From: Oscillospiraceae bacterium
Lineage (GTDB): Bacteria; Bacillota; Clostridia; Oscillospirales; Acutalibacteraceae
Length of the DNA stretch: 64,000 bases
Direction: 5' to 3'
NCBI GenBank assembly: GCA_902802375.1
Contig: CADCLS010000003.1
Span: 36,392-100,391, forward strand
Shown piece after piece: positions 22,062 to 51,004 of this stretch; the stretch's first letter is position 1, and every line of letters starts with the position of its first letter. Under the pieces are notes generated by a model that saw only the letters and a list, made by a program, of their open reading frames with translations, had not been told where the DNA came from and made no database searches. A program made the translations under genes and the position numbers.

Positions 22062-22265
22062 TTATATTCGTCTGGTTGAAGCCCATTCCATAAACTTGGA
22101 AGCCATAACCTTAAGATTTTTACCGCACTTTACAAGCGGAAAATCTTTGCGCCGCATAATCTGCCTTGCTACCGGAATAGAGCAACCCATAAGAGCGGCA
22201 ACTTCTTTCGTGCCTATAAACTTCATAAGGTCTATTTCCTTTGCTGTTAATACTGATTCACTCAT
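22062..22265 (-). CDS. Excisionase-like helix-turn-helix protein
   Basis: The 67-residue protein has the MerR/excisionase-type winged-helix block FIGTKEVAALMGCSIPVARQIMRRKDFPLVKCGKN (DNA-binding domain, excisionase family). Such proteins bend attachment-site DNA and direct the integrase toward excision. ATG 22265 follows a strong SD (gggggtgg); the longer open frame upstream lies in the ParB-like gene. The homolog in the second element (63093-63296) is nearly identical in this core. Confidence 0.88.
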   Translation of the reverse strand: MSESVLTAKEIDLMKFIGTKEVAALMGCSIPVARQIMRRKDFPLVKCGKNLKVMASKFMEWASTRRI

Positions 22266-22278
22266 TACTGCCACCCCC

Positions 22279-23166: not shown

Positions 23167-23257
23167 TAAAATTTTTCCTTTCGTTAATTTATTTTTGTTT
23201 TTGTCTGCCGTTCTTTCAAAGATGATAAAATATAAAAATGCAATTGAACGGTTTTTG

Positions 23258-24751
23258 TTATCTAGACATAATGTCTTTTTGGTTTTTAGCGTCACGGATT
23301 TTATATCCGCGTGCCACTTCATACGGGTCGTTTTCACGCTGAACATTCTGCTCGGCTCTAAGCATATCTTTCACCTTCGTCAGGTCATTAAGAATCGTCT
23401 GTGCCGTCTCCTTGTCCTTACGAAGATGTGTCAGTATCCGTGTGCAACTATCTCGCTTTTCGCTGTACTCCTGTATTCTTTTAGGGTCTTTTTCATTACG
23501 CAGTTTGTTCCGAAAATGCTCCCGGTATTTCTTAAAATCGGCAATGTCAAGTTCTTTCTTTGCGATATACTCCCGAACCTCGCCTACCGTTTTGAACTTT
23601 TCTTCGGACATGAGTATAACCTGCCTGCTGTACCTTTCAAACGACCGAGACGCTTCAAGAACTTCAGGCGATTTTGCTTTCATGTCTGTGGCTATAATAC
23701 ACCCGGGTATATGCGTTTCAGGCAATAAGAGTTCAATAGCAAGGGAGATAAGCTCAATCGCTAAATCTAAAACAAGCACAAACAGGACCGCATATATTTC
23801 GATTACAGAAGCATGCCCTAAATCCCAATCATAAAACTCACAGCGTTTCGTATATTCCTTTTTAGGCGGATTGGCACGCACCCACTCATAATCGTACCGA
23901 TAAAACATATCGTTAAAGCGGTCTATCGTACCTTGCCTGTCATATTGACAATTTTCATCAATGCGGTCAAAGATTGCGTCTCTGTCATAACTTTCGCCAA
24001 GTCTGAAAAGCCGAGTACCCCGCTTTGCATTATATGAACGGATAGTGGCATACTTATAATCGGTATTGAGACTTACAAAGTAACCCTGCTTTTTCATGGC
24101 ATAAACAAAGTCGGCGGCGGTGATACTTACATGAAGTGCCCTGTCTATTGCCTCACGCATAAGATTGTACTTTGTAGGCTCGCCATTCTTTTCGGCAATA
24201 TAAATCGGTCGTGGTGCACGCTTTTTCGGGTTTGCGATAACCGTTAAACCCTCTCGCGCACACATCTCGTCAGAAAGCCTGCGCATACGGTAATACTCTC
24301 GCTTAGAGCAATCGTATTTCCTGCCGTCCCAAATAGACACCGGCTGAATTATAAAGTGATTATGCCGAGTTTTAGTATTGAAATGGCTGGCAACTAATAC
24401 CTGATAATTATCTCCCCACATCTTACGGGCCAGTTCAACACCTAAGCGGTGGCACTGCTCGGCGGTGACTTCACCGGTCTTAAAACTCTGGTATGCGTGA
24501 TATGCTACATTGCCGCCGGTCTTGCCAAAACGCTCCTGGACTTCCTGCATTTCCTGTATGGCTGTTTCAGCGTTGCAGTTGATACCTGTTACGGCATAAA
24601 ACTGCTCGTCCTTATCAAGAGTTTTAGCAGTATTAGAAGCGTACTTTACGACCTGTTCCAAATCCGAGAATCTTGTCTTTTCAGGATTTTTTGCGTATTC
24701 TATGACTCGCGACATTCCACCTTTGATCTGCCATATCTTGGTTGTTGCCAA
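23258..24751 (-). CDS. Relaxase / mobilization nuclease
   Basis: The protein begins TTKIWQIKGGMSRVIEYAKNPEKT, typical of the Firmicutes relaxase/mobilization (PF03432-like, MobP-type) family, and has the metal-binding motif TRHNHFIIQPV near residue 140 and a C-terminal helical tail. The relaxase nicks the transfer origin and stays bound to the 5' end. I take TTG 24751 as start (497 residues) since aaggggg lies 8 nt upstream and gives the family start MATTKIW; ATG 24772 is the alternative. The start region overlaps mobC. No conjugation pore is encoded, so a helper is needed. Confidence 0.88.
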   Translation of the reverse strand: MATTKIWQIKGGMSRVIEYAKNPEKTRFSDLEQVVKYASNTAKTLDKDEQFYAVTGINCNAETAIQEMQEVQERFGKTGGNVAYHAYQSFKTGEVTAEQCHRLGVELARKMWGDNYQVLVASHFNTKTRHNHFIIQPVSIWDGRKYDCSKREYYRMRRLSDEMCAREGLTVIANPKKRAPRPIYIAEKNGEPTKYNLMREAIDRALHVSITAADFVYAMKKQGYFVSLNTDYKYATIRSYNAKRGTRLFRLGESYDRDAIFDRIDENCQYDRQGTIDRFNDMFYRYDYEWVRANPPKKEYTKRCEFYDWDLGHASVIEIYAVLFVLVLDLAIELISLAIELLLPETHIPGCIIATDMKAKSPEVLEASRSFERYSRQVILMSEEKFKTVGEVREYIAKKELDIADFKKYREHFRNKLRNEKDPKRIQEYSEKRDSCTRILTHLRKDKETAQTILNDLTKVKDMLRAEQNVQRENDPYEVARGYKIRDAKNQKDIMSR

Positions 24752-25043
24752 TATCTTTTCCCCCTTTTCCATGGTATAAATCAAGCAGCAGATCCTGTGC
24801 GGTTTTGAGTTTGTCTGTGTACATGTTTGTACCGTTATATTCCAAAAGTTCTAAACGCACATCGCCTATAATCTTGTATACTGATTGAAACTCTTTTGTA
24901 GGTGCTTCCATAATCTTTCGTTCAAGGGCACAGTTGCGGATATATTCCGATACTGCAAGACCGCACTTTTTAGCCTTGGCTTTAATCTTATTCAGTTCCG
25001 ACTGATAAAGCCTGAAACTGAACTGTTTGTTTCTTTCCCTCAT
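24681..25043 (-). CDS. mobC: MobC-like relaxosome accessory protein
   Basis: The small basic protein (about 120 residues) starts RERNKQFSFRLYQSELNKI, a ribbon-helix-helix-like N-terminus, followed by AKKCGLAVSEYIRNCALERKI, as in MobC proteins that open oriT DNA for the relaxase. Start choice: ATG 25043 lies 9 nt after agaggtg; ATG 25052 would overlap that SD. Its 3' end overlaps the relaxase start by 71 bp, a common mobC-relaxase coupling. Confidence 0.85.
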   Translation of the reverse strand: MRERNKQFSFRLYQSELNKIKAKAKKCGLAVSEYIRNCALERKIMEAPTKEFQSVYKIIGDVRLELLEYNGTNMYTDKLKTAQDLLLDLYHGKGGKDIGNNQDMADQRWNVASHRIRKKS

Positions 25044-25075
25044 AGGTTTCATCACCTCTTTTCTTTTTAGTATCA

Positions 25076-25260
25076 AGAAGACTCGTCGAGCCTCTCGGCT
25101 GGGGGGTCAAAGGGGTTCGCCCCTTTCGCGCTGATGCGCGTTTCCGGTTTTGGCTATACAAAACCTATGCTCGCTATTCTAACGGATAATATAGCCTCGA
25201 ATAGCCGCACCTCGTTTTATACCCTCATAGGGCATCACCTTCTTTCTTTTGTTTAGTAGC
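25076..25260. other. Candidate transfer origin (oriT) upstream of mobC
   Basis: This non-coding stretch directly upstream of mobC contains nested inverted repeats, including AAAGGGG-ttcg-CCCCTTT, CGCGC-tgat-GCGCG and CCCTAT...ATAGGG. Position (next to mobC/relaxase) and palindrome density are those expected of an oriT. I cannot identify the nick site. A short frame of 18 codons (25200-25256, minus) is also visible and is probably not significant. Confidence 0.4.
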
Positions 25261-25287
25261 AGTAGTAGCAGAACTTTTCCAGTTTGT

Positions 25288-26688
25288 TTATGCTGCTGTA
25301 ATGCAGTAATTTTGCTTTGTTTCAAGCGTCAGGGTAAAGTTTTTAAAGTAGGAAGAGCCGTTTCGCCTTGTAATAATTTCCTTATATTCGCCACCGATTA
25401 TTTTGGAAATTTCTTTTCTGAAATCTCGCTCGGTCTCGCAAAAGCCGGGATAATTATTCCGGCACCACGCCTTGTATGCTCTGAAAATTTTGCCGGTAGT
25501 ACAATCGTCAAACGGCTGTTTTTCTCCGCGCTCACACATACACTCTCTGAAAAAAGTTACGACAGTGTTGTTATCGTTCATATACTTTTCTCTCATCTCG
25601 CTAACACTTTTCGGCTCGTCAAACCGGTAACCGTTTGCTATAACTTTTGTCAGTGCCTTAACCGCTTTTTGAATGATTCCTTGCCGCTCGGCAAACATTT
25701 TTTCAAGCAAAGTTTTGTCCTGCTTAGATTTCGGAATAACATTATTACAGCAAACGACCATAATTCTTTCATAAACCCACGGTCCGTTGTCTCCGCCGAA
25801 CTTCGGTAAATTATTCATGCATAACCACATAAGTCCGTTGTAGGTGAAGTTAAAAGCTTTAAGCCCTTTGAACTCTGCCCGGATGGTGTCGCCGCCCGTG
25901 AGTTTTTTAAATGCCTTAAATTCTTTTACCTTCATACCCGATGCGTCTGCACTGCCGATAAGCCGTTTGCAATATAGGTCGCTTGTTCCGAACCGTTCTT
26001 CTAAATCTGATAATTCACATCCGCTGTAATTATCAGGACCGATTAGTTTTTCACATAAAGATTTCAGTTGCGACTTCCCCGTGTCTCCTGGTCCAACCAT
26101 AAAAAGAGATTTTTTCATACGGTAACCTTTGACATTGGATATTACTGCGCCCATGAATTCGAGCAATAAATTCTCAACTTCTTTATCTCCATTTGTCAGC
26201 GTTTTGAGATAATTATCGAACACGGGTGTAGAAACTTTTTTGTCAGTCCAATCGCAGGGAATCTGAATAGTAGAAAGATATTCCGGGGAGTGGGGTAAAA
26301 GTTTTAACTGCCCGTCAGAAATTTTTAGAATTCCGTTGCGGAAATTTATGATACTTTCGTCGCTGTCGAGTTCCTCAATACCGATATATTCAAGGTCGGT
26401 TGTAAGTTGTTTATATGCTTCATTGATGCCGGACATTTTTACATATTCCTCATCAATATCTGATACAAACTTTTTGATATACCCTTTAAAAAGTTCTGCG
26501 GAGCAGGGCTTGTACACGCCGTCACTGTACACATAAATCTGCTGGTCGCTTCTGCCGTTATTACGGACAATTTTGTAAAAAAGATTTTCTCTTACATGCT
26601 TTGCTAAAAGTGAACCTATGATTTTTGGCTCACCGCGCTTGTCGAAGGTAACAAAATCCGGCAGTTTATCTATCTTTGTTGCTTCCAT
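25288..26688 (-). CDS. D5/P4-type phage-plasmid primase-helicase
   Basis: The 466-residue protein has an N-terminal D5-like region (YVYSDGVYKPCSAELFKGYI) and a superfamily 3 helicase ATPase with Walker A GPGDTGKSQLKSL and Walker B-like YNGLMWLCMNNLPKFGG, then a winged-helix C-terminus (DDCTTGKIFRAYKAW). Proteins of this family unwind the origin of phages, satellites and integrative elements and may allow the excised circle to replicate. The ATG at 26688 follows an ideal aggaggtgg SD. The DNA upstream (26727-27420) with long repeats is a natural candidate for its origin. Confidence 0.85.
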   Translation of the reverse strand: MEATKIDKLPDFVTFDKRGEPKIIGSLLAKHVRENLFYKIVRNNGRSDQQIYVYSDGVYKPCSAELFKGYIKKFVSDIDEEYVKMSGINEAYKQLTTDLEYIGIEELDSDESIINFRNGILKISDGQLKLLPHSPEYLSTIQIPCDWTDKKVSTPVFDNYLKTLTNGDKEVENLLLEFMGAVISNVKGYRMKKSLFMVGPGDTGKSQLKSLCEKLIGPDNYSGCELSDLEERFGTSDLYCKRLIGSADASGMKVKEFKAFKKLTGGDTIRAEFKGLKAFNFTYNGLMWLCMNNLPKFGGDNGPWVYERIMVVCCNNVIPKSKQDKTLLEKMFAERQGIIQKAVKALTKVIANGYRFDEPKSVSEMREKYMNDNNTVVTFFRECMCERGEKQPFDDCTTGKIFRAYKAWCRNNYPGFCETERDFRKEISKIIGGEYKEIITRRNGSSYFKNFTLTLETKQNYCITAA

Positions 26689-26726
26689 TTTTTCCACCTC
26701 CTCTCGTTGAAATTTTTGTTTAACAT
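26670..26726 (-). CDS. Short 18-codon frame overlapping the primase start
   Basis: ATG 26726 is preceded by a perfect aaaggagg with 4-nt spacing and opens an 18-residue basic frame (MLNKNFNERRWKKWKQQR) ending 16 nt inside the primase gene in another frame. Its codons run through the primase SD. It could couple or tune primase translation. It is too short for family recognition. Confidence 0.4.
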   Translation of the reverse strand: MLNKNFNERRWKKWKQQR

Positions 26727-32621: not shown

Positions 32622-33329
32622 TTATAAATATATTTCTTTCAAATCATCCAGCCGTAAAAGTGCCGGGGTGTTGCCATAGGGCACGCCGACATCTATGTCT
32701 ATCCAAGTGTCGGTTTTAAGTATTTTACCTTTGAATTTACTGCCGTAACTCATTGTCGGCGTATGCCCGAAGACGGTTACAACATCGTCAAAATAGCGAT
32801 CAGTCAGTTCCGGCCACGCCCAGATAAACTCGTCTGCGGTGTAGTCGGATATTTTTTTATCGGGAGAAAAGTTATCAAGCCCCGAGTGGCAGAGCAAAAA
32901 ATCTTTGCCACCGGCGGAAACCGTTTCGTAAAGCGGCGCTTCCTTTAAGTATTCGAGTATGCTTTCGAGCTTTTCGGGATCTTTCCTTCTTAAATCGCGA
33001 AGTGCATGTAGCGTAACATCGCCGCCATTTAGCATATAGTTTGAAAGCAATCCCATTTTCTCTTTATCAAATTTTTGCACGCTTTCATCCGTTATTTCCT
33101 CGAACACAAAACCGCAGGATAGAAGCATCGCTTCGTGGTTACCAAGAATCAGCTCGGCATTTGGTTGCCCTAAAAGCCACTTTAAGATCTCAACGCCACC
33201 GTCATTTTGGCGGTCAATTACATCACCTAAAACGAAAAGCCAGTCGTTGTCGCTGAAATTTGCCTTTTTAAGAAGTGCTTTAAGTTTGTAAAGTTCAAGA
33301 CCATGTAAATCTGAAATTGCATAAATCAT
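32622..33329 (-). CDS. Serine/threonine phosphatase-type metallophosphoesterase
   Basis: The 235-residue protein has the PPP-family motifs AISDLHG (residues 4-10), GDVIDR and GNHE, then HSGLD and a C-terminal FGHTPTMSYG, all expected metal ligands. It belongs to the calcineurin-like phosphoesterase superfamily, close to PrpA/ApaH-like phosphatases; substrate (phosphoprotein, Ap4A or other) unknown. It is adjacent to a UDG-like gene, an arrangement repeated elsewhere in the element, and a truncated relative is found at 41767-41886. Confidence 0.88.
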   Translation of the reverse strand: MIYAISDLHGLELYKLKALLKKANFSDNDWLFVLGDVIDRQNDGGVEILKWLLGQPNAELILGNHEAMLLSCGFVFEEITDESVQKFDKEKMGLLSNYMLNGGDVTLHALRDLRRKDPEKLESILEYLKEAPLYETVSAGGKDFLLCHSGLDNFSPDKKISDYTADEFIWAWPELTDRYFDDVVTVFGHTPTMSYGSKFKGKILKTDTWIDIDVGVPYGNTPALLRLDDLKEIYL

Positions 33330-34618: not shown

Positions 34619-34755
34619 TTAAAAATTAATTGGCGAGGCATTACGCCCCGCCATTCTCTCATATTTTAAAACTGATAGAGTTTAAATGCACATAAATTAA
34701 TGAATAGTTGATTAAAAAGGCGAATTATGCTATATTTCTTTTACGGGGGTATGAT

Positions 34756-36255
34756 ATGTTTTATTTTTCAAAATCAAAATATTGCCTTATGTGGCAATGC
34801 CCGAAGCTTTTGTGGCTCAGTAAATTTCATCCGGAACTAAAACCCGAAGACCAGGCTTTACAGGTGCGATTTGATACCGGTAACGACGTCGGTGATCTTG
34901 CCATGGGTATTTTCGGCGATTACAAAGAAGTTGCCGCACTAAAACCGGACGGCTCGCAAGACCACGGCGAAATGATACGCCTGACAGGAGAATATATGGA
35001 AAAAGGCGTAGACAATATCTGCGAGGCATCTTTCAGCTATAAAGGCCTTTACTGCGCGGTAGATGTTCTGCGTAAAACTTCCGGCGGATATGCTATTTAC
35101 GAGGTTAAAAGCTCAACCGATGTCAAACCCGTTTACTGCGCCGATATCGCATACCAGAAGTATGTTTTAGAACATTTCGGTATCAACGTTACCGGCACGT
35201 ATCTTGTGTGTATCGACAATAGTTATGTTCGCGGCGAAGAGCTTGATATACATAAGCTCTTTCAGATAATAGACGTATCAGACGAAGTAAAAGATGAAAT
35301 GCAAAACGTTGAGCCGCTCATAAAAAAAGCCGAGCAGGTTTATGCTATGAAAACCGAGCCGGACATTGATATAGGCGGACATTGTTTTGAACCTTACGAG
35401 TGTGCATTTCGCTGTCACTGTGAAGAAAAACTGCCACACCCAAACGTTTTTGACCTATACCGGATAAATTATGATAAAGCACTGGAACTTTACAGGCAGG
35501 GCAAGGCGGATTTTAAAACATTGCTACACGACGGCAGCATAACCAACCCGAAACATCTTCGCCAGATGCTATATGCGGTATCCGATCAACCGGATGATAT
35601 TGATAAAGGTAACATTAAGTCCTTTTTAAGCACACTTACCTATCCCTTATACTTCCTTGATTTTGAAACTATGCAGCTTGCCGTTCCCCAGTTTCCGGGC
35701 ACAAAGCCATATCAGCAGATACCTTTCCAGTATTCGCTGCATTATATAGAGCGTGAGGGCGGTCCCTTATTACATAAAGAGTTTTTAGCCGAGTCGGGCA
35801 AAGACCCGCGCCGTGCTATCGCCGAGCGGCTTTGTGAGGATATACCGAAAGACGTTTGCGTTACAGCATATAACAAAACCTTTGAATGTGGCAGGATAAA
35901 TGAACTCGCCGAAACATTCCCTGACCTTGCCGAACATCTTTTGAATATTAAAGATAATATTGTCGATTTAATAGTTCCGTTTCGTTCCGGCTGGTATTAT
36001 AATCGGGCAATGGGCGGAAATTTCTCTATTAAAACCGTCCTTCCGGCGCTTTTCCCGAATGACCCGGAACTTGACTATCACGCGCTCGAGGGCATACATA
36101 ACGGCACCGAGGCAATGACAATATTTCCACAAATGCAGTTTATGCCACCCGAAGAGCAACAAATCACACGCCACAACCTGCTTGAATATTGCAAGCTTGA
36201 TACACTTGCAATGGTTAAGTTATGGGAGAAGCTAAAAGAAGTATCTAAACAATAA
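34756..36255 (+). CDS. DUF2779-type double nuclease: Cas4-like domain plus DEDD exonuclease
   Basis: The 499-residue protein has an N-terminal Cas4/RecB-like PD-(D/E)xK nuclease: D103, then YEVKSS around 115-120, with Cys that can hold an iron-sulfur cluster (C10, C15 and C210, C216, C220, C222). The C-terminal half is a DEDD/RNase H-like exonuclease with LDFETMQL (D302, E304), a middle TAYNKTFECGRI motif and YCKLDTLAMVKLW near 485. Together this fits DUF2779 proteins. It may act in nucleic acid end processing; biology unknown. ATG 34756 follows ggggg; an upstream ATG is in frame without SD. Confidence 0.78.
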   Translation: MFYFSKSKYCLMWQCPKLLWLSKFHPELKPEDQALQVRFDTGNDVGDLAMGIFGDYKEVAALKPDGSQDHGEMIRLTGEYMEKGVDNICEASFSYKGLYCAVDVLRKTSGGYAIYEVKSSTDVKPVYCADIAYQKYVLEHFGINVTGTYLVCIDNSYVRGEELDIHKLFQIIDVSDEVKDEMQNVEPLIKKAEQVYAMKTEPDIDIGGHCFEPYECAFRCHCEEKLPHPNVFDLYRINYDKALELYRQGKADFKTLLHDGSITNPKHLRQMLYAVSDQPDDIDKGNIKSFLSTLTYPLYFLDFETMQLAVPQFPGTKPYQQIPFQYSLHYIEREGGPLLHKEFLAESGKDPRRAIAERLCEDIPKDVCVTAYNKTFECGRINELAETFPDLAEHLLNIKDNIVDLIVPFRSGWYYNRAMGGNFSIKTVLPALFPNDPELDYHALEGIHNGTEAMTIFPQMQFMPPEEQQITRHNLLEYCKLDTLAMVKLWEKLKEVSKQ

Positions 36256-37081: not shown

Positions 37082-39538
37082 TTAGTACATTTTATACCAT
37101 GCCTGGATGACGGCAATTCTTGCGTATTCGCAAGCGTGGGCTTTTGGAAAAAGATACCAAATCTTTTTGCAGTATTCAATATACCAACAAGGCATTCCGA
37201 TTTCGGTCAAATCATTTTCAAATTCGCCTATTTTTTCGGCGGACAGCTTGCCTTTTGCAATCAGTCCCTTTCGAATTGTTTCTGAATAGCGAAATGCCTT
37301 CTCTCTTTCAAGTCCGCGAAAAAGTAAATCGTTATATATATCGTCCCTCGTGGTAGGGATATCGCTTAAAGTGCAAACGCCACCTTTAAGCAGTTCTTTT
37401 GCATTTCCTTTCCACGTGCCGGTGCCGTGAGAAAGTCCGATTATTTTTACAAGGTCCGAAAACTTTTCGGGCTTAGTCAGAGAAAGAATTTCAGATACAA
37501 AACCCGAGTTAAATTCCGTCATTTCTGTCAATTCGTTGTTAGATATAAGCGTAAAGATCTCCTGTGAATTTAATGGGATATCTTTTATCTTTTTACCGGT
37601 TTCCGCTTCGAGTTCATGTAGCAAATCAAGGTGTTTTACAGGTAAAATATCAAACTGATAAAGAGTGTCATATAAATCACGGTAGATGAAGTGCGATATT
37701 GGTAAACCGTTATATTTTCCTTCTCTTGTCGGTGTGAAATCTAAGATTTCTTTATTTTGGGGGATTAAAAATAACCCTGCCGGATGAATTTCGTCACTCT
37801 GCTTAACCTTAGTCAGTTTATCAATGATTATATCTTTTTCCAGATAATTCAGCAGGCGACCTGTTTTAGATTCATAATCTTCAATCATTTTTTTTGCATA
37901 GGTTTCGCTTACGGTGCGAACTGTTCCGCAGACAGCAACCCTCTTTCCGTCAAAGTATTCGTTTGAAATCTTGTTAGTAATCATATTACGACTTACTGTA
38001 TTGCAGTTTATATCAATATCGGGAACCTTATCACCCTTAAATCCGAAAAATGTTTCATGAGGAATATTCATACCGTCACCGTGAATTATTTCGCCGCAGG
38101 AACATCCTGTATCTGGCAAATCCGCGCCGCTTGAGGCGTTTTTTACCCATTCGGTTTTTCGGCACTTAGGGCAGTAATAATGAGGTGGCAAAGGATTTAT
38201 ATCGGTTATACCCAAACAGTACGCGAGAAAAGACGAAGCGGCAGTTCCTCTTGTTGTATGTAATCCTCCTATAAGTGAAATATCTCTGACAATCATTCTT
38301 GCCAGCAACAATTCGTCAGCACAGGATTTGACAATCGGGAGATTAAGCTCGGCGTCAAGCCGTTCTTTTATTTCCGCCGGCAGTTGTCCTTCTTTGTCGC
38401 TGTATTTCGAAGCTGCAAAATTTTCGGCAAACATTTTTATCGCCTTATATGAGTCCTCAAATAAATTGTCGTGAAAATCACGGGGTATAATTTCAATATC
38501 TTCGATTTGCTCGGCAATTTTATTTGTGTTGTTTATCACAACGTCGGTTGTGTCTTCTCCGAGATACGAAAACATCTCTAACATATCTTCGGTATTAAAT
38601 AAATACGCCGTCTCGTTACCGTAATTTTTAAATCCTCTGCCATTTTTAAGAATGCGCCAGGGCAGTTTACCGTCCATATCTATAAACTTTGCGCAACTTA
38701 CAGCTACAACCGGTTTGCCTTTTTCCTTTGCGTATTTAAGAATTCGCAAATTTTCTTCTTTTTTTATATTAGATGAATATGTACGGTTGATTTCGAAATA
38801 ATCATAAAATTTCAGCATTTTTTCATTGTTTATAAAACTACTAAAATCGTGTGCACCGAATAACAACCCTTCACGATACTTTTCCATTACACTAATGGGA
38901 ACGTTCTTACAGACACCGTCATCCTTTAGTTCTGAAATAATGTGATACAGATTTTTAAGCCCTTTTTGGCTTTTTACAAGCACGGTCGTAAATAGAGGGT
39001 ACCCGCCCTTATAGTCGCTGTGAATGATCTGCGCGCCGTAAATCGGCTTGATACCTGCCTTTTTGCACACTCTCTCGAATTCAGGAAAACCCTGAACGCA
39101 GTTTAAGTCGGTCAAAGCAATCGCCGGCATACCGTTCTCTTTGGCAAAGTCCACAAGTTCCTTTATGCTTATTATGCTATCCATTTTGTCATAAACGCTA
39201 TGGGCGTTAAGTTCGATTCTCGCCATTTCTGAAACACTGTCGGGCGTTCCTTGCAATTCTACACCCAAGAGCTCCGCCAGATATTTTACAGAATCTATGA
39301 AATCAATGCTTTTTATAAGGCTGATAAATTTGATAACATCTCCGCCAATACTGCAACCAAAGCAATAGAAAGTCTGCGAATCGGGGTAAACGGTAAAAGA
39401 CGGTGTGTGCTCACTATGAAAAGGGCAAAGGCCAACATAGTTGTTACCTCTTTTCTTAAGATTTACATATTCCGAAACAATATCTACAATACTGATTTCG
39501 GATTTAATTTCATTTATAACTTCTTCTGGAATTACCAT
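37082..39538 (-). CDS. DnaG-type CHC2 zinc finger fused to a PolC-like polymerase core
   Basis: 818 residues. Residues 1-98 are a DnaG-primase CHC2 zinc finger (C38, H41, C59, C62, with CPFHSEHTPSFTVYP). Residues ~105-350 are a PolC PHP domain (ELNAHSVYDKMDSI, ALTDLNCVQGFPEF, KPIYGAQI) whose metal ligands are partly lost (NAH for HLH, TDL for TDH), without the exonuclease normally inserted there. Residues ~420-818 are the PolC palm/thumb/fingers: TRGTAASSFLAYCLGITDINPL, Cys4 site (C456, C459, C479, C481), KGDKVPDIDIN (D507, D509), YQFDIL (D630), SGFVSEILS, FPKAHA. All three palm aspartates are kept. The duplex-binding C-terminus is missing. ATG 39538 follows aaaggag. Confidence 0.85.
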   Translation of the reverse strand: MVIPEEVINEIKSEISIVDIVSEYVNLKKRGNNYVGLCPFHSEHTPSFTVYPDSQTFYCFGCSIGGDVIKFISLIKSIDFIDSVKYLAELLGVELQGTPDSVSEMARIELNAHSVYDKMDSIISIKELVDFAKENGMPAIALTDLNCVQGFPEFERVCKKAGIKPIYGAQIIHSDYKGGYPLFTTVLVKSQKGLKNLYHIISELKDDGVCKNVPISVMEKYREGLLFGAHDFSSFINNEKMLKFYDYFEINRTYSSNIKKEENLRILKYAKEKGKPVVAVSCAKFIDMDGKLPWRILKNGRGFKNYGNETAYLFNTEDMLEMFSYLGEDTTDVVINNTNKIAEQIEDIEIIPRDFHDNLFEDSYKAIKMFAENFAASKYSDKEGQLPAEIKERLDAELNLPIVKSCADELLLARMIVRDISLIGGLHTTRGTAASSFLAYCLGITDINPLPPHYYCPKCRKTEWVKNASSGADLPDTGCSCGEIIHGDGMNIPHETFFGFKGDKVPDIDINCNTVSRNMITNKISNEYFDGKRVAVCGTVRTVSETYAKKMIEDYESKTGRLLNYLEKDIIIDKLTKVKQSDEIHPAGLFLIPQNKEILDFTPTREGKYNGLPISHFIYRDLYDTLYQFDILPVKHLDLLHELEAETGKKIKDIPLNSQEIFTLISNNELTEMTEFNSGFVSEILSLTKPEKFSDLVKIIGLSHGTGTWKGNAKELLKGGVCTLSDIPTTRDDIYNDLLFRGLEREKAFRYSETIRKGLIAKGKLSAEKIGEFENDLTEIGMPCWYIEYCKKIWYLFPKAHACEYARIAVIQAWYKMY

Positions 39539-40747: not shown

Positions 40748-41740
40748 TCATACCATTATACCCGCCAGATAAAGACCCTTTTCTGTGTAAATATTTGGCC
40801 TCTTTTGCTTTGCATCTTCTTCGGAAAGAATGTTATGATACCCTTCACAGAGCAAAGCGGCGTCAATGTCACCTTTTACATAATTGCTAAAAGCAGTAAG
40901 AATCCGTCTATAACCCGAAAGCTCACCCCGATATAACTCCAAGTCCATATAATTGCACATAACTTCATTGTAAACTCGCCCATCGTCATCAAAGAAATAT
41001 CCCCAGGCATTCATATCGGTATTATCGCCGTCTTTCCTCGTGCTTTCTCTTGCAAATTCAGGTGTAATATCCGTCATAACAAAAGGTCCGCTGCAGAAGC
41101 CTTCGGGATGAGAAGGATCCCAAACTATATCGCCCTTGTGGAACGGTGTCGGAAACTCGAACCACAAACCTTCAAAAACGCCCCAGTATATATCTTCGTC
41201 ATCTTTGTTTTCAAAGCGTCCGGGATCAAGGGACAGAATATCAAAAGACGGCGTAAGATATGCTACTTGCCAGCTGTTTAATCTATCGACTTGCATCTTG
41301 GTACACCGAATAGAAACAACATCCTCATCCGGCTCCATAATTGATTCATACAAGGCATCAAAGCACGAAAATACGGTTTCCCAGTCATACTTAGGAGCAT
41401 CTCTATAAATGTATTCGAACTTATAGACATATGCCTTGTAATCATTATAAGTATCAGTATGCTTATCGTCAAAAAACTCGTTTACCAGTTTATCCTCAAG
41501 TTCCATGTACTTTTTCAGAAAAGCGTGCAGACTATCCTGCGGAACAGTATTCATCCGCTCCGGTATAGAACAGTCCGGCATTGTTTTAATAAGTTCGTTC
41601 CACGCATTGTGCTTTTCTTTAAGCTTTGCGTCTTTGCACTGATATATGAGCCACGCGGCTTCCAACGAATTAAACTTATAACCGATATTTATTAAATGTT
41701 CTCTTATATCCTTTGAGTTAATAAATCTTGCAATATCCAT
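40748..41740 (-). CDS. Hypothetical protein with TPFxxGDIV motif (paralog 2)
   Basis: The 330-residue protein starts with a helical region ([28 protein letters not shown]) and carries [19 protein letters not shown] in the middle, the same motif as its neighbour, then an acidic region ([19 protein letters not shown]) and a C-terminal helix. Both ends resemble proteins abundant in gut Firmicutes elements but without known role. ATG 41740 follows ggagg. Its SD region borders the truncated metallophosphoesterase fragment, so the region has been rearranged. Confidence 0.6.
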
Positions 41741-41766
41741 TTTAGTCCTCCACATAAAACTCTTCT

Positions 41767-44300: not shown

Positions 44301-44860
44301 TCCTCGGAGATAATTTCTTCAAGCGTGCGGGGTGTATAGTTCATATACGGCATCATAGCGCCTACGTTTATAAAGTTTCCGTTTGGTGTGCCGTAGCCGG
44401 TGTAATTTTCGAGTATGCTCTTTCGCATATCTTTTAAGTATTCGTAGTCTTGTTTTTGATGAACGTGCCCGTAAAGCATATATGAGTTTTCGGCTGATCC
44501 CGCCCTGAAAAACGGGATAGGGTAATGGCAAAGCGTAAGGTGATGCCCGCTATCTTTTATCTCTTTAAAAGGTGTGATTTCCGAAAACAGTCGCTTTGTA
44601 GCAGGGCTAAACTGTTTAGGATCGTGGTTGCCTACTATCAGCACTTTGTTGCCGTTAAGTTGCTCTACGTAAAAAGCCCAATTTTCCTCTTTAATCCATA
44701 TAAAATCGCCGAGAATATAAACGGTGTCTTCGGGCTTTACGCGACTGTTCCAGTTCTCAATTATAGCCCTGTTCATTTCATCTATATCCTTAAATGGGCG
44801 TTTATCAAGATAAATTATGTTTGCGTGTCCAATATGTAAATCAGAAATATAGAAGTTCAT
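44276..44860 (-). CDS. Metallophosphoesterase
   Basis: The 194-residue protein has the calcineurin-type motifs FYISDLHIGHANII, VYILGDFIW, VLIVGNHDPKQ, LCHYPIP and YGHVHQK, all metal ligands in place. This compact variety (YfcE/MPE type) cleaves phosphodiesters or phosphomonoesters; substrate unknown. It is the last gene of the AAA+ operon and overlaps the 110-residue gene by ATGA, which argues for joint function. Confidence 0.85.
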   Translation of the reverse strand: MNFYISDLHIGHANIIYLDKRPFKDIDEMNRAIIENWNSRVKPEDTVYILGDFIWIKEENWAFYVEQLNGNKVLIVGNHDPKQFSPATKRLFSEITPFKEIKDSGHHLTLCHYPIPFFRAGSAENSYMLYGHVHQKQDYEYLKDMRKSILENYTGYGTPNGNFINVGAMMPYMNYTPRTLEEIISEDKKYRQTV

Positions 44861-45189
44861 AATGTTTTCGCCTCACGGTACACCTGATACATATACCCTA
44901 GTCCGTACGGGTTACCGTAACAAAGTATTCCCCATGTATCAGGAATTTTCCCCTGCACGGCGCTGCGCTTTTCCGGATCGCTTATTACAGCATATGTAAG
45001 GTCACATCCAGTTTCAAGGGGAAACGAATTGCCGGTTTGCTCATCAAAGATAATAAACCCAACGGTTTTTTCAGCGTTCTTAAATACAAGATCGGCGGTG
45101 CAGTCCGAATTTTCCGCTTCCTCAAAGCCCCGGCACAGACACCACATTTTTACGGCGTTTATAAGTTTGTTTTTCTCTTCAGTTTTCAT
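44857..45189 (-). CDS. Hypothetical 110-residue protein of the AAA+ operon
   Basis: A small alpha/beta protein with CTADLVFKNAEKTVGFIIFDEQTG and TWGILCYGNPYGLGYMYQVYREA. The central beta hairpin with spaced D and E residues is compatible with a small restriction-endonuclease-like fold, but I cannot confirm a PD-(D/E)xK site. It has an ATGA overlap with the phosphoesterase and starts 9 bp after the RecF-like gene. Confidence 0.6.
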   Translation of the reverse strand: MKTEEKNKLINAVKMWCLCRGFEEAENSDCTADLVFKNAEKTVGFIIFDEQTGNSFPLETGCDLTYAVISDPEKRSAVQGKIPDTWGILCYGNPYGLGYMYQVYREAKTL

Positions 45190-45198
45190 GCTCGCTCC

Positions 45199-45906
45199 TC
45201 ATTTTATAAATATAATCTGTCTATTTATAAGTTCTCTGTTTTCTTTCAAGATTTTTCTGTCTTTCTCACTTAAATTTTTAATAAACAGTGGTTTGCCTTC
45301 ATGGTGAATATTTACTGTGCTTTTAAATTCGTCCCAAAACCGCACAGTATCAACAAAGGACAGTATAGGGCTTTTTAAATCGGGTGAAAGGGTGCGGTAG
45401 GTAAGAAAGTGTTTAAGTGCTCGGCGAAAGGTTGGGGTAACACTCATACCGTCGGTCAGTTTACAGAGCTCGCCCGGGGCATAGTATTTTTCCTCACACA
45501 GATACCGTTCCAAATCAAAAGGCGCATTTTCATAATCCGGAAAATCGGAGAAGCACAGCCGTATCTCTTCTTCACATTGCCGGATTGCCGAAAAGTAACC
45601 CGACTGTGAAGCGGTTTCAAACCGGTTTAGCGGTATGGCGTTTACAGTCGGCACATACCGCCTGCCGCACGATTCTATTTTATATAGTGCGTTTTCTGTT
45701 ACCACTTCGGCATAAAGCCTTGTGCTTTTGTTTCTTTTCGGCGGTCTGCCCCGGCTTTTATCCGTAGGACAACCGAACAGAAGCCGGACGGCGGATAGTA
45801 GATCGTCTGCAAAATCTGTGTTTACTGTGCCAATATCCGCCGTAAAGGTATTATCTAACCGCTCGATTTCGCCGAAGTTTTCAATCAGTAGTCGTTTAAT
45901 ATACAT
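45199..45906 (-). CDS. RecF/SMC-like N-terminal domain protein without Walker A
   Basis: The 235-residue protein begins MYIKRLLIENFGEIERLDNTF, the usual start of AAA_23/RecF/SMC-head ATPases, but the segment where GxxGxGKS should be reads GTVNTDFADDLLSAVRLLFG, so the P-loop is gone. The rest is helical without signature or Walker B motif, and it ends near where the first coiled coil would begin. It is complete (own SD, stop before the next gene) rather than a fragment, and probably plays a structural role with the AAA+ protein 7 bp upstream. Confidence 0.6.
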   Translation of the reverse strand: MYIKRLLIENFGEIERLDNTFTADIGTVNTDFADDLLSAVRLLFGCPTDKSRGRPPKRNKSTRLYAEVVTENALYKIESCGRRYVPTVNAIPLNRFETASQSGYFSAIRQCEEEIRLCFSDFPDYENAPFDLERYLCEEKYYAPGELCKLTDGMSVTPTFRRALKHFLTYRTLSPDLKSPILSFVDTVRFWDEFKSTVNIHHEGKPLFIKNLSEKDRKILKENRELINRQIIFIK

Positions 45907-45913: not shown

Positions 45914-47941
45914 CTACTGACACTGGAAACCGATTGCCGGCTTCGGTTGTTCGGTTTTTATAAGCGGCGCTTCAATATCCGAAATTTCGAGCGTTTGCAG
46001 TTCTTTGAGTGTTAAATCGGCATCGTTCATTTTTGCGATTCGGCTTGCCTGATTCATCTTTGAAAGTTCAATAAGATTGCGCACGTATCTGCCGTTTCCA
46101 AAGCCGGTATGTTGCCTTGCGTCTTCAAAAATGGTATTAAGTTTCCCGAGTGCCTCATCGGTGAGTATAACGCCCTTATCTTTGCCTATTAGTCCGGCAA
46201 TTTTGCATAGCTCGTCGGCGTTATAATCGGCAAACGGAACGTGAAAAGCTATTCTTGAGCGAAGCCCCGGATTTTTATCCAAAAACCGCTCCATTTCCTC
46301 GGGGTAGCCCGCAAATATCACCACAAGGTCCTCGCGGCGATTTTCCATTTCCTGCACTATGGTATTTATCGCCTCGTCGCCAAATGAGCCGCCACGGTCA
46401 TCTACAAGCGAATACGCCTCGTCAATAAAAAGCACGCCGCCCATAGCGGTTTTGAATTTATCTTTCACTATCGAAGCCGTCCAGCCGACGTATTTGCCCA
46501 CAAGGTCGCTTCTGCCTACCTCTACAAGATGCCCTTTTGAAAGCAGACCGTTTTCCTTCATAATGCGGGCAAACAGGCGAGCCACCGTGGTTTTAGCCGT
46601 GCCGGGATTACCAGTAAACACCATGTGCATAGCCGGGCGGTCCTGCTTGATGCCTTTATCCTTATAAATCCGCTGTATTTTATAGTAATTAAGTGCCTTT
46701 TCTATAACCGATTTGGCTTCGCTTAGCCCTATCATTTTGCTTAATTCGTCATAGGCGTTGCCTCTGGCGACTTCCTTCTTGGCTTCATTACTGCAAACCG
46801 AAATACCCTTATACTGCGGATAAACCGAGGTTTTCATTTTGCTGTTGTACCAGTTATCAAACATATTGCGAAGCTCTTCGGGTAAATACTTCTTGTCTTC
46901 CTCTAAATCTTTATAAAGTTTTTTATCGGGCCTTATATGGCAATCTTTACACATCATTTTGAGATAACCAATAGAGTTTTCCATGTCGGCAAGGTCTTCT
47001 TTTATCTCGACAATTCCCATACTGCCGAGATTTTCATAAAACATGGCTTTCTTTTTCTCGCAGGCACGGGGGAAGCATAACACTGTTAATACTTGATTGC
47101 GATATTTTATCATCGCTTCGCAGATGGCGGATATAGTTTCCATTTCGCTGTTTGCATAGTTGTTATCCTCATCGGAATCGTCGCACGCCATATAGCGCAC
47201 CACGATAGCACCTTCGGTACAACTTTTATATATTGCATCATAAACTATTCTCGCAAAACTCTGTCCGGGTTTGAAATCAAGAAAACAATACCGTCGGCTT
47301 TTTATACGATTATTGTCATAGAGTGCCTGAAGCAGGGTACGATATAGCGATTTTCTTGTGTCACGATCATCGGTTTCAATAATATAGTGCACAGGATGTC
47401 CAAACGCTTTGCAGTTCGGTTTTCCCGCATATATTCTGTCAAGTTCCGGGCCTAATGTTTCCCGTGCGAGAAGCTCTTTTGAAGTTTTATAAAGCAAAGT
47501 TTTATTTCCCTTATTGCTTAACAGGTTTTCACCGTAATTTATTCCGCGAAATCCTCTGTCTCCTAATTTATCAAGCCCGAACTGCTCAAGGACATCATCA
47601 TCCTCACTAATAAAGTTATTGTGGTCAGCCATACTAAGCATATTTCGTATAGTGTTAAAGGTTACTTCACTCACAACGGGCGTATCGGTGGCAACACCAA
47701 GATATTTAAAAAATGACTGTGATGATTTAACTGCATCGATTGATTCATACGAAATAATACCGCACAAAATGTTGTCATCAATCCCAGCAATAAAGCAGTA
47801 ATTTCCTTTCTTATCGTGGCTGTTATAATCTTCGGCTTTCTCCGCCAACAGCCGGACGCGTTCTTGTTTTATTCGCCTGTCGTTGTTTTCCTCCGCCCAT
47901 TTTTCGTTCTCAAGCATGGCATTAACTTTATAAAATAACAT
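45914..47941 (-). CDS. AAA+ ATPase, CbbX/SpoVK type with degenerate first AAA module
   Basis: 675 residues. The C-terminal half (about 385-660) is an intact CbbX/SpoVK-type AAA+ module: YDELSKMIGLSEAKSVIEKAL, Walker A FTGNPGTAKTTVAR, VGKYVGWT, Walker B GGVLFIDEAYSL, sensor-1 VVIFAGYPEEM and Arg finger NPGLRSRI. The N-terminal ~380 residues include a second, decayed AAA-like region (CFLDFKPGQSFARIVYDAI, VLTVLCFPRACEKK) without a P-loop. CbbX-like proteins remodel or activate partner proteins, and related modules occur in type VII secretion and defence. ATG 47941 follows gggaggt. It heads a four-gene operon. Confidence 0.85.
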   Translation of the reverse strand: MLFYKVNAMLENEKWAEENNDRRIKQERVRLLAEKAEDYNSHDKKGNYCFIAGIDDNILCGIISYESIDAVKSSQSFFKYLGVATDTPVVSEVTFNTIRNMLSMADHNNFISEDDDVLEQFGLDKLGDRGFRGINYGENLLSNKGNKTLLYKTSKELLARETLGPELDRIYAGKPNCKAFGHPVHYIIETDDRDTRKSLYRTLLQALYDNNRIKSRRYCFLDFKPGQSFARIVYDAIYKSCTEGAIVVRYMACDDSDEDNNYANSEMETISAICEAMIKYRNQVLTVLCFPRACEKKKAMFYENLGSMGIVEIKEDLADMENSIGYLKMMCKDCHIRPDKKLYKDLEEDKKYLPEELRNMFDNWYNSKMKTSVYPQYKGISVCSNEAKKEVARGNAYDELSKMIGLSEAKSVIEKALNYYKIQRIYKDKGIKQDRPAMHMVFTGNPGTAKTTVARLFARIMKENGLLSKGHLVEVGRSDLVGKYVGWTASIVKDKFKTAMGGVLFIDEAYSLVDDRGGSFGDEAINTIVQEMENRREDLVVIFAGYPEEMERFLDKNPGLRSRIAFHVPFADYNADELCKIAGLIGKDKGVILTDEALGKLNTIFEDARQHTGFGNGRYVRNLIELSKMNQASRIAKMNDADLTLKELQTLEISDIEAPLIKTEQPKPAIGFQCQ

Positions 47942-48012
47942 AGTTTTACCTCCCGATTTTTCTACGAGCAAATAATAGCACTTCTTATGCACCAAAAAGG
48001 GGAGGTATGAAA

Positions 48013-48039
48013 AAAGGACCGTGAAAATCACGATCCTTT
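48013..48039 (-). terminator. Terminator between WYL gene and AAA+ operon
   Basis: AAAGGACCGTG (48013-48023) pairs with CACGATCCTTT (48029-48039); read leftward it ends in TTTTTT. It separates the WYL gene from the AAA+ operon. Confidence 0.8.
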
Positions 48040-48061: not shown

Positions 48062-49045
48062 TTATTTGTTGTACTTGTTGGCAGCGTTTTGCAGATTTTC
48101 AGTTATCTTATCTACTAATAATTTAGGAAAAACAACCTTTACATAGTTTATATACTGCATCGCCCAGTGTTCCATGGCAAGCAGGCTTACTTTTACGGAA
48201 ACCTTAAGAGTTTTTTCATCCTCTTTAATAATGCGGATGTCTTTTCCGAACCAGTCGATTATCTGGTCGATTATGTCCGCATCAGCTAAAAACTCAACCG
48301 TTTCGGGTTTATCGGTATACATATACGGAAAAGCGGTGGCGAGCTCCTTGTAGTTTATGCCGTGCTCAAAACCGGGATTTGAGGTTATGGGAGTAAGCTT
48401 TTCTTCACGAAGCGACATATCGGTAATGCGGTCAAGGCGGTAATAAACCATATTTTTCCAGTATTCATCCCGCGCCATAAGATAATACCGCTGATTATGC
48501 AGAATAAGCTGATACGGGCTGACGTTATGCGTATGTGTGCGGTGAAGTTTTTTATCCGCACCGAATTTGTTATACTCAAAACGGATCTGTTTTTTGTTTT
48601 CTATCGCCTCGTCAACGATTTCAATATTATAAAAAAGCGCCTGGTTTTCGGTTTTGTCCCAATCGTTTACGGTATGGATGTGTTTAACGTGGGACATAAA
48701 ATACTGGCTTGAAAGAGAACAGAGTTTTTCTATCAAGTCCTTTGAGTATTTAGGTGCAATATGTTTGCTCGAAAGCACGCCGTCTATAAGCACACGAAGC
48801 TCCGATTCGGTAAAATCGCGGCTGTCAAGATAACTGCCGGCGCGGCTTGACTCAATTTCAAAACCGGCTTCTTTAAGTAGCGATATATTACGGCTTATCG
48901 CTTTGCGCTCGATATCAATGCCGTAATCGCCGAAAAGATAATCGGCGATATCCTCCTGCTTTAAGGGATGGTCGCAGTCACTGTATTTCTCGAATATCTG
49001 TAATATACGCAAAAGCGCGAGTTTTTTCGGCTCTAAACCTTCCAT
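48062..49045 (-). CDS. WYL-domain transcriptional regulator
   Basis: The 327-residue protein has an N-terminal winged helix (LALLRILQIFEKYSDCDHPLKQEDIADYLF...RKAISRNISLLKEAGFEI) and a WYL domain (NVSPYQLILHNQRYYLMARDEYWKNMVYYRLDRI, about 180-215), ending with a WCX-like C-terminal region. WYL regulators sense nucleic-acid-type ligands and frequently control phage-defence operons. Its position right upstream of the AAA+ operon on the same strand, but separated by a terminator, suggests it regulates that operon. SD acggaggg before the ATG. Confidence 0.88.
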   Translation of the reverse strand: MEGLEPKKLALLRILQIFEKYSDCDHPLKQEDIADYLFGDYGIDIERKAISRNISLLKEAGFEIESSRAGSYLDSRDFTESELRVLIDGVLSSKHIAPKYSKDLIEKLCSLSSQYFMSHVKHIHTVNDWDKTENQALFYNIEIVDEAIENKKQIRFEYNKFGADKKLHRTHTHNVSPYQLILHNQRYYLMARDEYWKNMVYYRLDRITDMSLREEKLTPITSNPGFEHGINYKELATAFPYMYTDKPETVEFLADADIIDQIIDWFGKDIRIIKEDEKTLKVSVKVSLLAMEHWAMQYINYVKVVFPKLLVDKITENLQNAANKYNK

Positions 49046-49547: not shown

Positions 49548-50732
49548 TTAATCAAAATACCCTTTATATTCAATTTTCAAATCGCTGGTTGGGAACAAGT
49601 GATTATATAGTTCTATAAAATAATCGTCGGTCATACTTGCAATATAATCTACAACGATTTGATTCGGCTCTTCGCTTTCATAGGGGCTTACGCGGCTATA
49701 ATGTGACTTATTAACATAATCAATATGATGCTTGTAAATCAACGAATCGGTGTTTTTGCTTTCAAGGTCATTTAAGAGTTTCTCATACACCGCTTTTATC
49801 ATCGGCTTAACGGTGGTATTAAGGGTGTGGGAAATTTTTTTGTTGTTATAAATCAGTTCGTAGTTATCCGCTTTTGCCTTTTTTAGCGCGGCGAAATGCT
49901 CGGCATCCATTTTGATATACGGCTTACCGTAACTGTTTTCAATGATGTTTACAACAAGATTGTTTATTATCTCGGCGTTTATCACCCCGATAGCGCCGCC
50001 CGCATAATCGGTATCCGCCAAAAGCCCGGCGCGCTCGGCATCCTGCCGGTCCTTGCCGAGGTAAGCGATAATATCCGAAATACGCACAACGCACCCTTCA
50101 AGCGTGGAAGGCACCAGATTTTCGATATTGCTTTTATCTATGTAGCAACTCTCGATTTGCGCGTCAAATTCGGTAAAACTGTCAAGCTGCTTCGGGCGGT
50201 ATTCGGCGAGTTCTAACTCGCCGTCGTGCGCCGCAATGCCGGATAGCGTTTGCAGCGTTATGTTATACGGAAAGATTCTATCGAGCACCCGGACCGAATG
50301 AATATTATGGGCAAAATGCCTGCCGGTATGTGTGAAGTAAACCTCGTCAAGAAAACTCTCACCCGCGTGACCAAACGGAGTATGCCCTATATCGTGACCG
50401 AGCGCGATCGCCTCTATCAGTTCAAGGTTAAGCCCTAACGCCTTGCCGATAGTCCGCGCAATTCGGGAAACGAGCTGAACGTGAAGTCCGCGCCGAGAAA
50501 TATCATCGTTTTTATAAAACGAGAACACCTGCGTTTTATCAGCGTAGCGGTTATAAAAAGGACAGTGAAGTATCTTATCCGAGTCCCTTATAAACGGCGT
50601 GCGAACGGCATCGGGTTTATCGTGCGTATTGTCCCGACGGACAGCGTTCTCATCCGCAAAAGCATAAGGACTTATTTTCCGAAAAGCAATCTTTTCGGCA
50701 ATTTCCGGGCTTAAATTATCATAAACAGGCAT
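49548..50732 (-). CDS. dgt: dGTP triphosphohydrolase-like HD protein
   Basis: The 394-residue protein has the dGTPase HD motifs: RRGLHVQLVSRIARTIGKAL, LGHDIGHTPFGHAGE (HD pair) and AAHDGE..., plus a C-terminal region typical of Dgt. It hydrolyses dNTPs to nucleosides and triphosphate. Element- and defence-associated dGTPases deplete nucleotides during phage infection, and this copy lies within the element, not the host core. ATG 50732 follows gcgaggtg; the upstream in-frame start is not preceded by an SD. It lies 20 bp after the small gene 50753-51004. Confidence 0.88.
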   Translation of the reverse strand: MPVYDNLSPEIAEKIAFRKISPYAFADENAVRRDNTHDKPDAVRTPFIRDSDKILHCPFYNRYADKTQVFSFYKNDDISRRGLHVQLVSRIARTIGKALGLNLELIEAIALGHDIGHTPFGHAGESFLDEVYFTHTGRHFAHNIHSVRVLDRIFPYNITLQTLSGIAAHDGELELAEYRPKQLDSFTEFDAQIESCYIDKSNIENLVPSTLEGCVVRISDIIAYLGKDRQDAERAGLLADTDYAGGAIGVINAEIINNLVVNIIENSYGKPYIKMDAEHFAALKKAKADNYELIYNNKKISHTLNTTVKPMIKAVYEKLLNDLESKNTDSLIYKHHIDYVNKSHYSRVSPYESEEPNQIVVDYIASMTDDYFIELYNHLFPTSDLKIEYKGYFD

Positions 50733-50752
50733 AGTTTCACCTCGCCTATATT

Positions 50753-51004
50753 CTACCACTTTGAAAGTCTGGTTGCAAGATAAAACCCATATTTAAACGC
50801 TTCTGCTTCGGAGACGGAGTTCATTTCGTTTGTGGCGGTATAGTATTTCTCGAACAATTCGGCTTGTTCGGCGCTGAGAGTTACTTCGAGTTTTCCGCGG
50901 TTTTTTGCTACTATACGAAGCAATTCTTTATATTCCTTATTATCCGCAAGAAACTCTTCAACCGGTCGGATATTGCCATACCAGAGGTTTTCAAGTGTTG
51001 TCAT
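50753..51004 (-). CDS. Small accessory protein (DUF6809-like)
   Basis: 83 residues starting TTLENLWYGNIRPVEEFLADNKEYKELLRIV, a pattern I associate with short proteins located next to TnpV in clostridial transposons and conjugative elements. It is all-helical. The start ATG overlaps the tnpV stop by ATGA. Function unknown. Confidence 0.7.
   Translation of the reverse strand: MTTLENLWYGNIRPVEEFLADNKEYKELLRIVAKNRGKLEVTLSAEQAELFEKYYTATNEMNSVSEAEAFKYGFYLATRLSKW

What the first reader, a model, noticed from the sequence alone, without database searches (positions are those of the whole stretch)
37082..39538. Chimera of a DnaG primase zinc finger and a PolC polymerase core on a mobile element
One protein joins the CHC2 zinc finger of DnaG (C38, H41, C59, C62) directly to a PolC-like PHP and palm/thumb/fingers. 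The PolC catalytic aspartates are kept (D507, D509, D630), as is the Cys4 site (C456, C459, C479, C481). The DnaG Toprim catalytic domain, the PolC 3'-5' exonuclease, OB domain and C-terminal duplex-binding region are absent, and two PHP metal ligands are replaced. I know of no described function for such a fusion. It could be an error-prone polymerase, a priming polymerase, or a replisome mimic that interferes with phage or host DnaG/PolC.
Basis: partly seen in the sequence, partly recalled or inferred. Interest (0 to 1): 0.88.

Follow-up and report, generated by a model that had tools for sequence, protein, structure and literature searches.

The report
Stripped-down PolC with captured primase finger
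A bacterium carries a cut-down copy of its main DNA-copying enzyme fused to a zinc finger from its primer-making enzyme; it belongs to an apparently undescribed family of such cut-down enzymes that sit among defence-type genes, so they may be a stress or anti-virus device rather than copying machinery.

Summary
In detail: window 37082-39538 (-) is one 818-aa frame joining a DnaG CHC2 zinc finger to a PolC-type PHP, palm and fingers. It is not a one-off wreck of the host PolC. Thirteen loci (in 958 genomes searched, a lower bound) encode the same core without OB/NTD, exonuclease and C-terminal tail; the 12 put in a tree split from 29 PolCs on one branch, 100/99. Ten of 13 lie 2 bp to 25 kb from one subfamily of WYL regulator, and nuclease, restriction, phosphatase, dGTPase-like and helicase genes recur nearby. 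The catalytic aspartates are kept in 8 of 13 and changed in 5; 90 of 90 PolC rows keep them. The finger is so far unique to this locus and groups, with modest support, beside DnaGs of its genus. Best reading: a WYL-controlled accessory factor of defence-type islands that engages primed or single-stranded DNA; DNA synthesis looks optional across the family. Function is inferred, not shown. Within the genus alone the WYL co-occurrence is weak (p 0.06).

The parts
37082..39538 (-). CHC2-mini-PolC fusion gene, 818 aa
39548..39556 (-). AAAGGAGAG, probable ribosome-binding site, 9 bases before ATG 39538
   Evidence: read from sequence
39251..39529 (-). CHC2 zinc finger of DnaG type (C38 H41 C59 C62), residues 4-96
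   Evidence: Pfam 1.2e-35; 1d0q 4.3e-28
39224..39226 (-). ATG of residue M105, the place where the finger-less homologue G020 begins; no Shine-Dalgarno seen before it
38840..39211 (-). PHP domain match, metal site degenerate
   Evidence: Pfam 9.8e-21; ligands
37889..38431 (-). DNA_pol3_alpha (palm) match with D507, D509 and the Cys4 site
37385..37606 (-). PolC finger-domain match; D630 lies just upstream
48062..49045 (-). WYL regulator of the subfamily found near 10 of 13 mini-PolCs
   Evidence: Pfam 9.6e-13
45914..48031 (-). AAA+ ATPase; relatives near the minis of G068 (68-69%) and G816
45199..45906 (-). unknown 235-aa protein, relative beside the AAA+ gene in G068
34708..36255 (+). DUF2779 protein with a weak Cas4-like part; relatives near the minis of G816, G068, G956
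32622..33329 (-). calcineurin-like phosphoesterase; relatives near five other minis
   Evidence: Pfam 2.7e-13
49548..50759 (-). HD-domain dGTPase-like protein; relatives beside the minis of G816 and G803
   Evidence: Pfam HD 1.2e-10, PADLOC dGTPase 2.7e-45
44857..45189 (-). 110-aa protein, weak relative (27%, 2.6e-05) of the N-terminal part of the G803 half-gene fusion
40748..41755 (-). unknown protein; relatives near the minis of G429 and G956
20808..26697 (-). integrase, ParB, MobA relaxase and D5-type genes of an integrative element near the island

Best explanation
P0001 is a chimeric member of a family of stripped PolC relatives ('mini-PolC': PHP, palm, thumb, fingers; intact frames 728-910 aa) found in WYL-linked, defence-type islands of one bacterial class. 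Here a DnaG zinc finger, from a DnaG close to those of the genus, stands in front of the whole mini-PolC frame. Most likely mechanism: the WYL regulator (in studied cases a sensor of single-stranded DNA) switches island genes during DNA damage or invasion; the mini-PolC then binds primed or single-stranded DNA, or replisome partners, at a damaged or foreign fork, without the clamp, OB, tail and proofreading parts of a replicase; in this copy the CHC2 finger adds a second template contact. Any synthesis would be short and unproofread. As 5 of 13 members lack catalytic aspartates while fingers and most zinc-site residues stay, binding or mimicry is more likely the shared function than DNA synthesis. 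Shown: anatomy, family, gene association, erosion. Inferred: induction, DNA binding, target, role in defence.
For: One branch separates 12 minis from 29 PolCs, 100/99. WYL subfamily near 10 of 13 minis, gaps 2-25022 bp; next to the mini in G576; rough, after-the-fact chance estimate 1e-12 to 1e-9. In 15 of 15 genus genomes with this WYL (40% identity or more) the ordinary PolC (or PolC piece) is on another contig. Neighbours include GmrSD, PDDEXK_4, SNF2, MoxR, VWA, dGTPase-like and Cas4-like genes. Triad changed in G031, G576, G895, G803, G043; PHP complete in only 2 of the 12 with that region. Palm positions are lost more than finger positions in 9 of 9 minis compared. Constraint: dN 0.25 against dS about 2, saturated, between P0001 and G020. 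WYL-ssDNA: PMC10693628, passages.
Against: P0001 itself keeps D507, D509, D630 and 32 of 39 near-invariant finger positions, as an active polymerase would. The WYL gene is 8.5 kb from P0001 with other genes between. No WYL of this kind was seen for G020 (8.5-kb contig), G803 and G043. In the genus, WYL co-occurs with minis in 3 of 5 against 12 of 65 (p 0.06; phosphatase 4 of 5 against 13 of 65, p 0.011), and 12 of 15 genomes with this WYL showed no mini. No defence, binding or expression data exist. The neighbours vary from locus to locus, so the mini may be unrelated cargo.
Confidence: 0.5

Rival explanations
1. An active accessory DNA polymerase: a distributive, unproofread gap-filling or translesion enzyme, in role like DnaE2, with the CHC2 finger holding the template; it would patch damage from stress or from the island's own nucleases.
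For: Triad intact in P0001 and 7 relatives; G534 keeps triad and all nine PHP ligands; finger motifs SHGT..W.GNA, RDDI, RKG and FPKAHA kept; WYL regulators control DNA-damage genes elsewhere.
Against: Five of 13 relatives have a broken triad; palm positions are the most eroded (46 of 81 kept), including the stretch around D630; no clamp motif or C-terminal tail.
Confidence: 0.3
2. A C-family priming polymerase: the DnaG finger lets the PolC core start chains de novo, as the zinc finger of PrimPol supports priming.
For: The finger keeps its ligands and is the top-scoring CHC2 of 68 in the genus; PrimPol precedent from the abstract of PMC4027207 as listed.
Against: The DnaG catalytic Toprim part is absent; the other 12 minis have no finger, so the base function does not need it; no C-family enzyme is known to me to prime (recalled).
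Confidence: 0.07
3. A decaying or recently scrambled gene without function.
For: The G043 copy is broken into two frames and G803 is a half gene fused to another small domain; the fusion is seen once; the frame ends about 14 residues before that of G020.
Against: 818 codons open, start and Shine-Dalgarno present, zinc ligands and triad kept, dN/dS about 0.13 for the mini part (715 codons) and 0.15 for the finger (97 codons), dS saturated in both.
Confidence: 0.1

Closest known systems
PolC replicase (e.g. Geobacillus kaustophilus, PDB 3f2b), including exonuclease-less clostridial PolC
   Same: PHP, palm, thumb, fingers, Cys4 site and catalytic triad align over residues 89-817
   Different: No OB/NTD, no C-terminal tail with clamp motif, degenerate PHP; minis branch apart from 29 PolCs
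DnaG primase, N-terminal CHC2 finger (PDB 1d0q)
   Same: Finger with all four ligands, 4.3e-28
   Different: No Toprim catalytic domain, no helicase-binding C terminus
Reverse transcriptases of DRT defence systems with a CHC2-like part (PADLOC RT_UG29; also RTasDnaG-like)
   Same: The finger matches both models (4.8e-19 and 6.3e-14): a DnaG-type finger with a polymerase in a defence setting
   Different: The polymerase there is a reverse transcriptase; the mini-PolC part matches no PADLOC model
Other odd C-family proteins: DnaEX with a uracil-glycosylase domain, DnaE1 with a Lar-like zinc domain (PMC3919608)
   Same: Extra polymerase copies with domains swapped (section read)
   Different: DnaE type, keep the HhH region; no CHC2, no stripped PolC named in that section
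ImuB, a catalytically dead Y-family protein of a mutasome
   Same: Polymerase fold kept with a lost active site in a stress response (PMC12926913 passages)
   Different: Y family; works with DnaE2 and ImuA

Membership tests
PolC replicase | PolC-type PHP, palm and fingers with three catalytic aspartates | tested here: met
   (P0001); not met in 5 of 13 relatives
PolC replicase | N-terminal domain and OB domain | tested here: not met
   only CHC2 lies before the PHP
PolC replicase | C-terminal HhH region and clamp-binding motif | tested here: not met
   alignment ends at residue 1085 of the 1237-residue piece of the host PolC, which ends NQMSLF; judged by alignment, no HhH model run
PolC replicase | Intact PHP metal site HHDHEHCDH | tested here: not met
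   NHDLQF-CK; 90 of 90 PolC rows, some of them duplicates, keep it
PolC replicase | Branches among PolCs | tested here: not met
   minis on one side of a branch 100/99, long branches noted
DnaG primase | CHC2 finger | tested here: met
DnaG primase | Toprim catalytic domain | tested here: not met
   no match
DRT defence (UG29-type) | Reverse transcriptase domain | tested here: not met
   matches only in residues 5-104 and 17-98
Known anti-phage system (PADLOC v2.0.0) | Polymerase part matches a listed model | tested here: not met
   P0001 and six other minis; six of 13 minis not tested
Anti-phage defence (functional) | Protects against phage or plasmid | not testable with these tools
   needs a bench test
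Primase-polymerase | De novo chain initiation | not testable with these tools
   needs a bench test

The most novel reading that the evidence does not exclude
A WYL-switched immune or fork-damage module that turns pieces of the host replisome into an effector: a PolC core in all members, a DnaG finger fused to it here, and a DnaB-type motor domain encoded between WYL and mini-PolC in G031. It would be the first C-family polymerase in bacterial defence that I know of, acting as a replisome decoy or as a poison of foreign replication forks.
Probability: 0.3. Interest if true: 0.88.

Novelty: new variant of a known kind. Interest (0 to 1): 0.72.

Why it matters
C-family polymerases are treated as replicases plus the repair enzyme DnaE2. 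The architecture section of one survey (PMC3919608) calls PHP-Pol3-HhH nearly universal and lists no CHC2 fusion; passages of a second (PMC12926913) name none either. A family of PolC cores without these modules, spread over several families of a class, partly catalytically dead and linked to a WYL regulator and defence-type genes, would show the replicase fold reused in conflict or stress. The chimera is directly testable: finger, palm and triad can be disabled one by one in an 818-aa protein.

Tried and rejected
Viral origin: the IMG/VR hits to the mini alignment (4 loci) and the three phage records opened are full-length PolCs (frames 1269-1534 aa). Of 354 phage and 276 plasmid records with a match, 3 and 4 cover 80% or more of the query, and none of these begins before residue 89, so none has finger plus core (only the best 20 rows of each were shown).

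Named relatives: the genome-contig scan gave one close relative, L116 (MAG RUG14147, 'Ruminococcaceae bacterium', the same contig as G020's); L117 is DnaE1.

Dropped as pieces of PolC on contig ends: G178, G022, G830; short rows of G018, G005, G885, G927, G921, G814 and others were judged from the tables alone. G791 (two matches) was not opened. Searches scored only two candidates per genome and listed about 150 rows; G576 and G534 were missed and found, so 13 is a lower bound. The A2 profile did not separate minis from PolCs.

My early note that no mini keeps both sites was wrong: G534, found later, keeps all twelve residues.

Empty site: DNA downstream of leuS was fetched for 13 genus genomes and compared for 11 (two too short, some of the 11 short too). 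Gene order is scrambled; apart from integrase, PBP and DUF4364 relatives no window gene matched, and no clean empty site was seen.

Structure: an 8-row alignment gave pLDDT 63 and pTM 0.46; Foldseek ranks PolC first (3f2c 3.2e-43) but with rmsd 13.4, so the placement of the finger cannot be used. Attempts to deepen the alignment failed.

Literature: nine searches ran. In their listings I saw no CHC2-PolC fusion and no WYL-PolC link; the library lacks most subscription papers. PMC3919608: one section and passages; PMC12926913 and PMC10693628: passages; all others: listing or start of abstract.

Full report
WHAT IS THERE. Window 37082-39538 (-) encodes 818 aa from ATG 39538, with AAAGGAGAG 9 bases before it. 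Pfam finds CHC2, PHP, DNA_pol3_alpha and finger in that order. Against solved structures, residues 89-817 match G. kaustophilus PolC (3e-111) and residues 3-96 the zinc domain of Bacillus stearothermophilus DnaG (4.3e-28). The same genome (1.68 Mb in 24 contigs) has a PolC (open frame 1292 aa), a DnaE (1146) and a DnaG (597) elsewhere. Its PolC also has no exonuclease inserted in the PHP, so that absence is not special; 6% of PolCs in a 2013 survey lack it, all but one in Clostridia and Negativicutes (PMC3919608, section read).

THE FINGER. In 70 genus genomes PF01807 (E up to 1e-8) gives 68 hits in 67 genomes: one per genome, and a second one only here, which has the top score, 126.2 bits. 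The finger is 63% identical at best to 13 DnaGs of the genus, 52% to that of its own genome, and 44-52% to 7 DnaGs of the order; a tree of 21 groups it with the genus DnaGs at 92/93, but outside them (83/80) and on a long branch. Against the G016 DnaG dN is 0.31 and dS about 2, saturated (97 codons): old, yet constrained. A Met at residue 105 stands where the G020 protein begins.

A FAMILY. Searches with the C-family part covered 958 genomes (handles G000-G957), unevenly: two large calls scored two candidates per genome. Thirteen loci carry the core without OB/NTD, exonuclease and C-terminal tail: G000, G020, G816, G803 (a half gene fused to another small domain), G031 (five in the genus, of 70 genomes), G429, G956, G895 (same family), G068, G149, G043 (same order; G043 is split in two frames), G576, G534 (same class). 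None but G000 has the finger. In a tree of 12 minis (G043 left out) and 29 thinned PolCs the minis are one side of a branch at 100/99. An earlier tree of 99 rows (94 different) also kept 90 PolC rows together at 99/98. Long branches make the order among minis unsure, and long-branch attraction cannot be excluded for the split itself.

EROSION. All 90 PolC rows keep nine PHP ligands and three aspartates. The triad is kept in G000, G020, G816, G429, G068, G149, G956 and G534, and changed in G031 (D-N-D), G576 (V-D-D), G895 (Y-V-D), G803 (N-T-E) and G043 (all). The PHP site is complete only in G031 and G534; G534 keeps all twelve. Of 177 near-invariant PolC positions P0001 keeps 115: PHP part 37/57, palm part 46/81, finger part 32/39 (limits set by me). 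Palm is below fingers in 9 of 9 minis compared (G956, G895, G576 and G534 were not yet known), but nearly equal in G043. Left out one at a time, PolC rows keep at least 95.6%, median 99.4%. P0001 against G020: dN 0.25, dS about 2, saturated (715 codons).

NEIGHBOURS. One WYL subfamily lies near 10 of 13 minis, with gaps of 2, 886, 1091, 1610, 3638, 5493, 6988, 8488 (window), 12399 and 25022 bp. It was not seen for G020 (contig of 8.5 kb), G803 (about 44 kb read) and G043 (18 kb read). A rough chance estimate, made after seeing the distances, is 1e-12 to 1e-9. Other recurrent genes: metallophosphatase (window, G020, G429, G816, G895, G534); DUF2779 (window, G816, G068, G956); SNF2-MoxR-VWA (G068, G149, G816, G895; next to the mini in G149 and G895); PDDEXK_4 (G149, G429 twice, G956, and by 72% identity G020); GmrSD (G816 twice, G576); HD dGTPase-like (window, G816, G803); AAA+ (window, G068, G816). 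In G031 a 266-aa protein with a DnaB C-terminal domain (Pfam 1.6e-27) and a P-loop (read from the sequence) lies between WYL and mini.

CONTROLS. In 15 of 15 genus genomes with this WYL (40% identity or more) the ordinary PolC, or the PolC piece found, is on another contig. Within the genus the presence-absence test is weak: WYL 3 of 5 mini genomes against 12 of 65 others (p 0.06), phosphatase 4 of 5 against 13 of 65 (p 0.011). Twelve of the 15 WYL genomes showed no mini, so the mini is variable cargo of this island type.

MECHANISM. WYL domains bind ssDNA in several studied regulators and control damage and phage-defence genes (PMC10693628, passages). From this, the neighbours, and the loss of the processivity and proofreading parts, I infer an inducible accessory factor that acts on ssDNA, primed DNA or forks. 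The mixed fate of the triad argues that synthesis is not what all members share; for P0001 itself synthesis stays possible. The finger would add a template contact; in DnaG it is a template-binding domain (recalled). I put family and gene association at about 0.9, and this mechanism at 0.5.

NOVELTY. PADLOC has no model for the polymerase part (7 of 13 minis tested), while two of its DRT models match the finger. The papers seen name neither the fusion nor the association (searches listed under Tried and rejected). I file it as a new variant of a known kind, with an open chance of more.

Noticed in passing
L105:7263-8063 (G031): A 266-aa DnaB C-terminal-domain protein with a P-loop is encoded between the WYL gene and the mini-PolC: a second replisome piece in such a locus.
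   Followed up: partly
L127:8923-10365 (G803): The C-terminal half of a mini-PolC is fused to a ~110-aa domain related to window 44857-45189; all three catalytic aspartates are replaced.
   Followed up: partly
L102:4172-12183, L148:2106-10545, L150:4972-11307: A SNF2 helicase-MoxR ATPase-VWA (DUF2201) gene triplet recurs beside or near mini-PolCs in the same gene order; possibly a system of its own.
   Followed up: partly
window 20808-24784 and 61806-63999: Two integrase-ParB modules with related genes (integrases 41%, ParB 45% identical) lie on both sides of the region; the first also has a MobA relaxase.
   Followed up: partly
window 41899-42297 and 42388-42816: Two tandem small proteins, 52% identical, without a confident Pfam match.
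   Followed up: no
window 60288-61694: ATPase_2/DUF234 protein with a weak Mrr_cat restriction-endonuclease match (0.0012).
   Followed up: no
window 31297-32556; also L150:11372-12154 and L207:10466-11152: BspA-type leucine-rich repeat proteins occur near mini-PolCs in three genomes; they may just be common in these bacteria.
   Followed up: no
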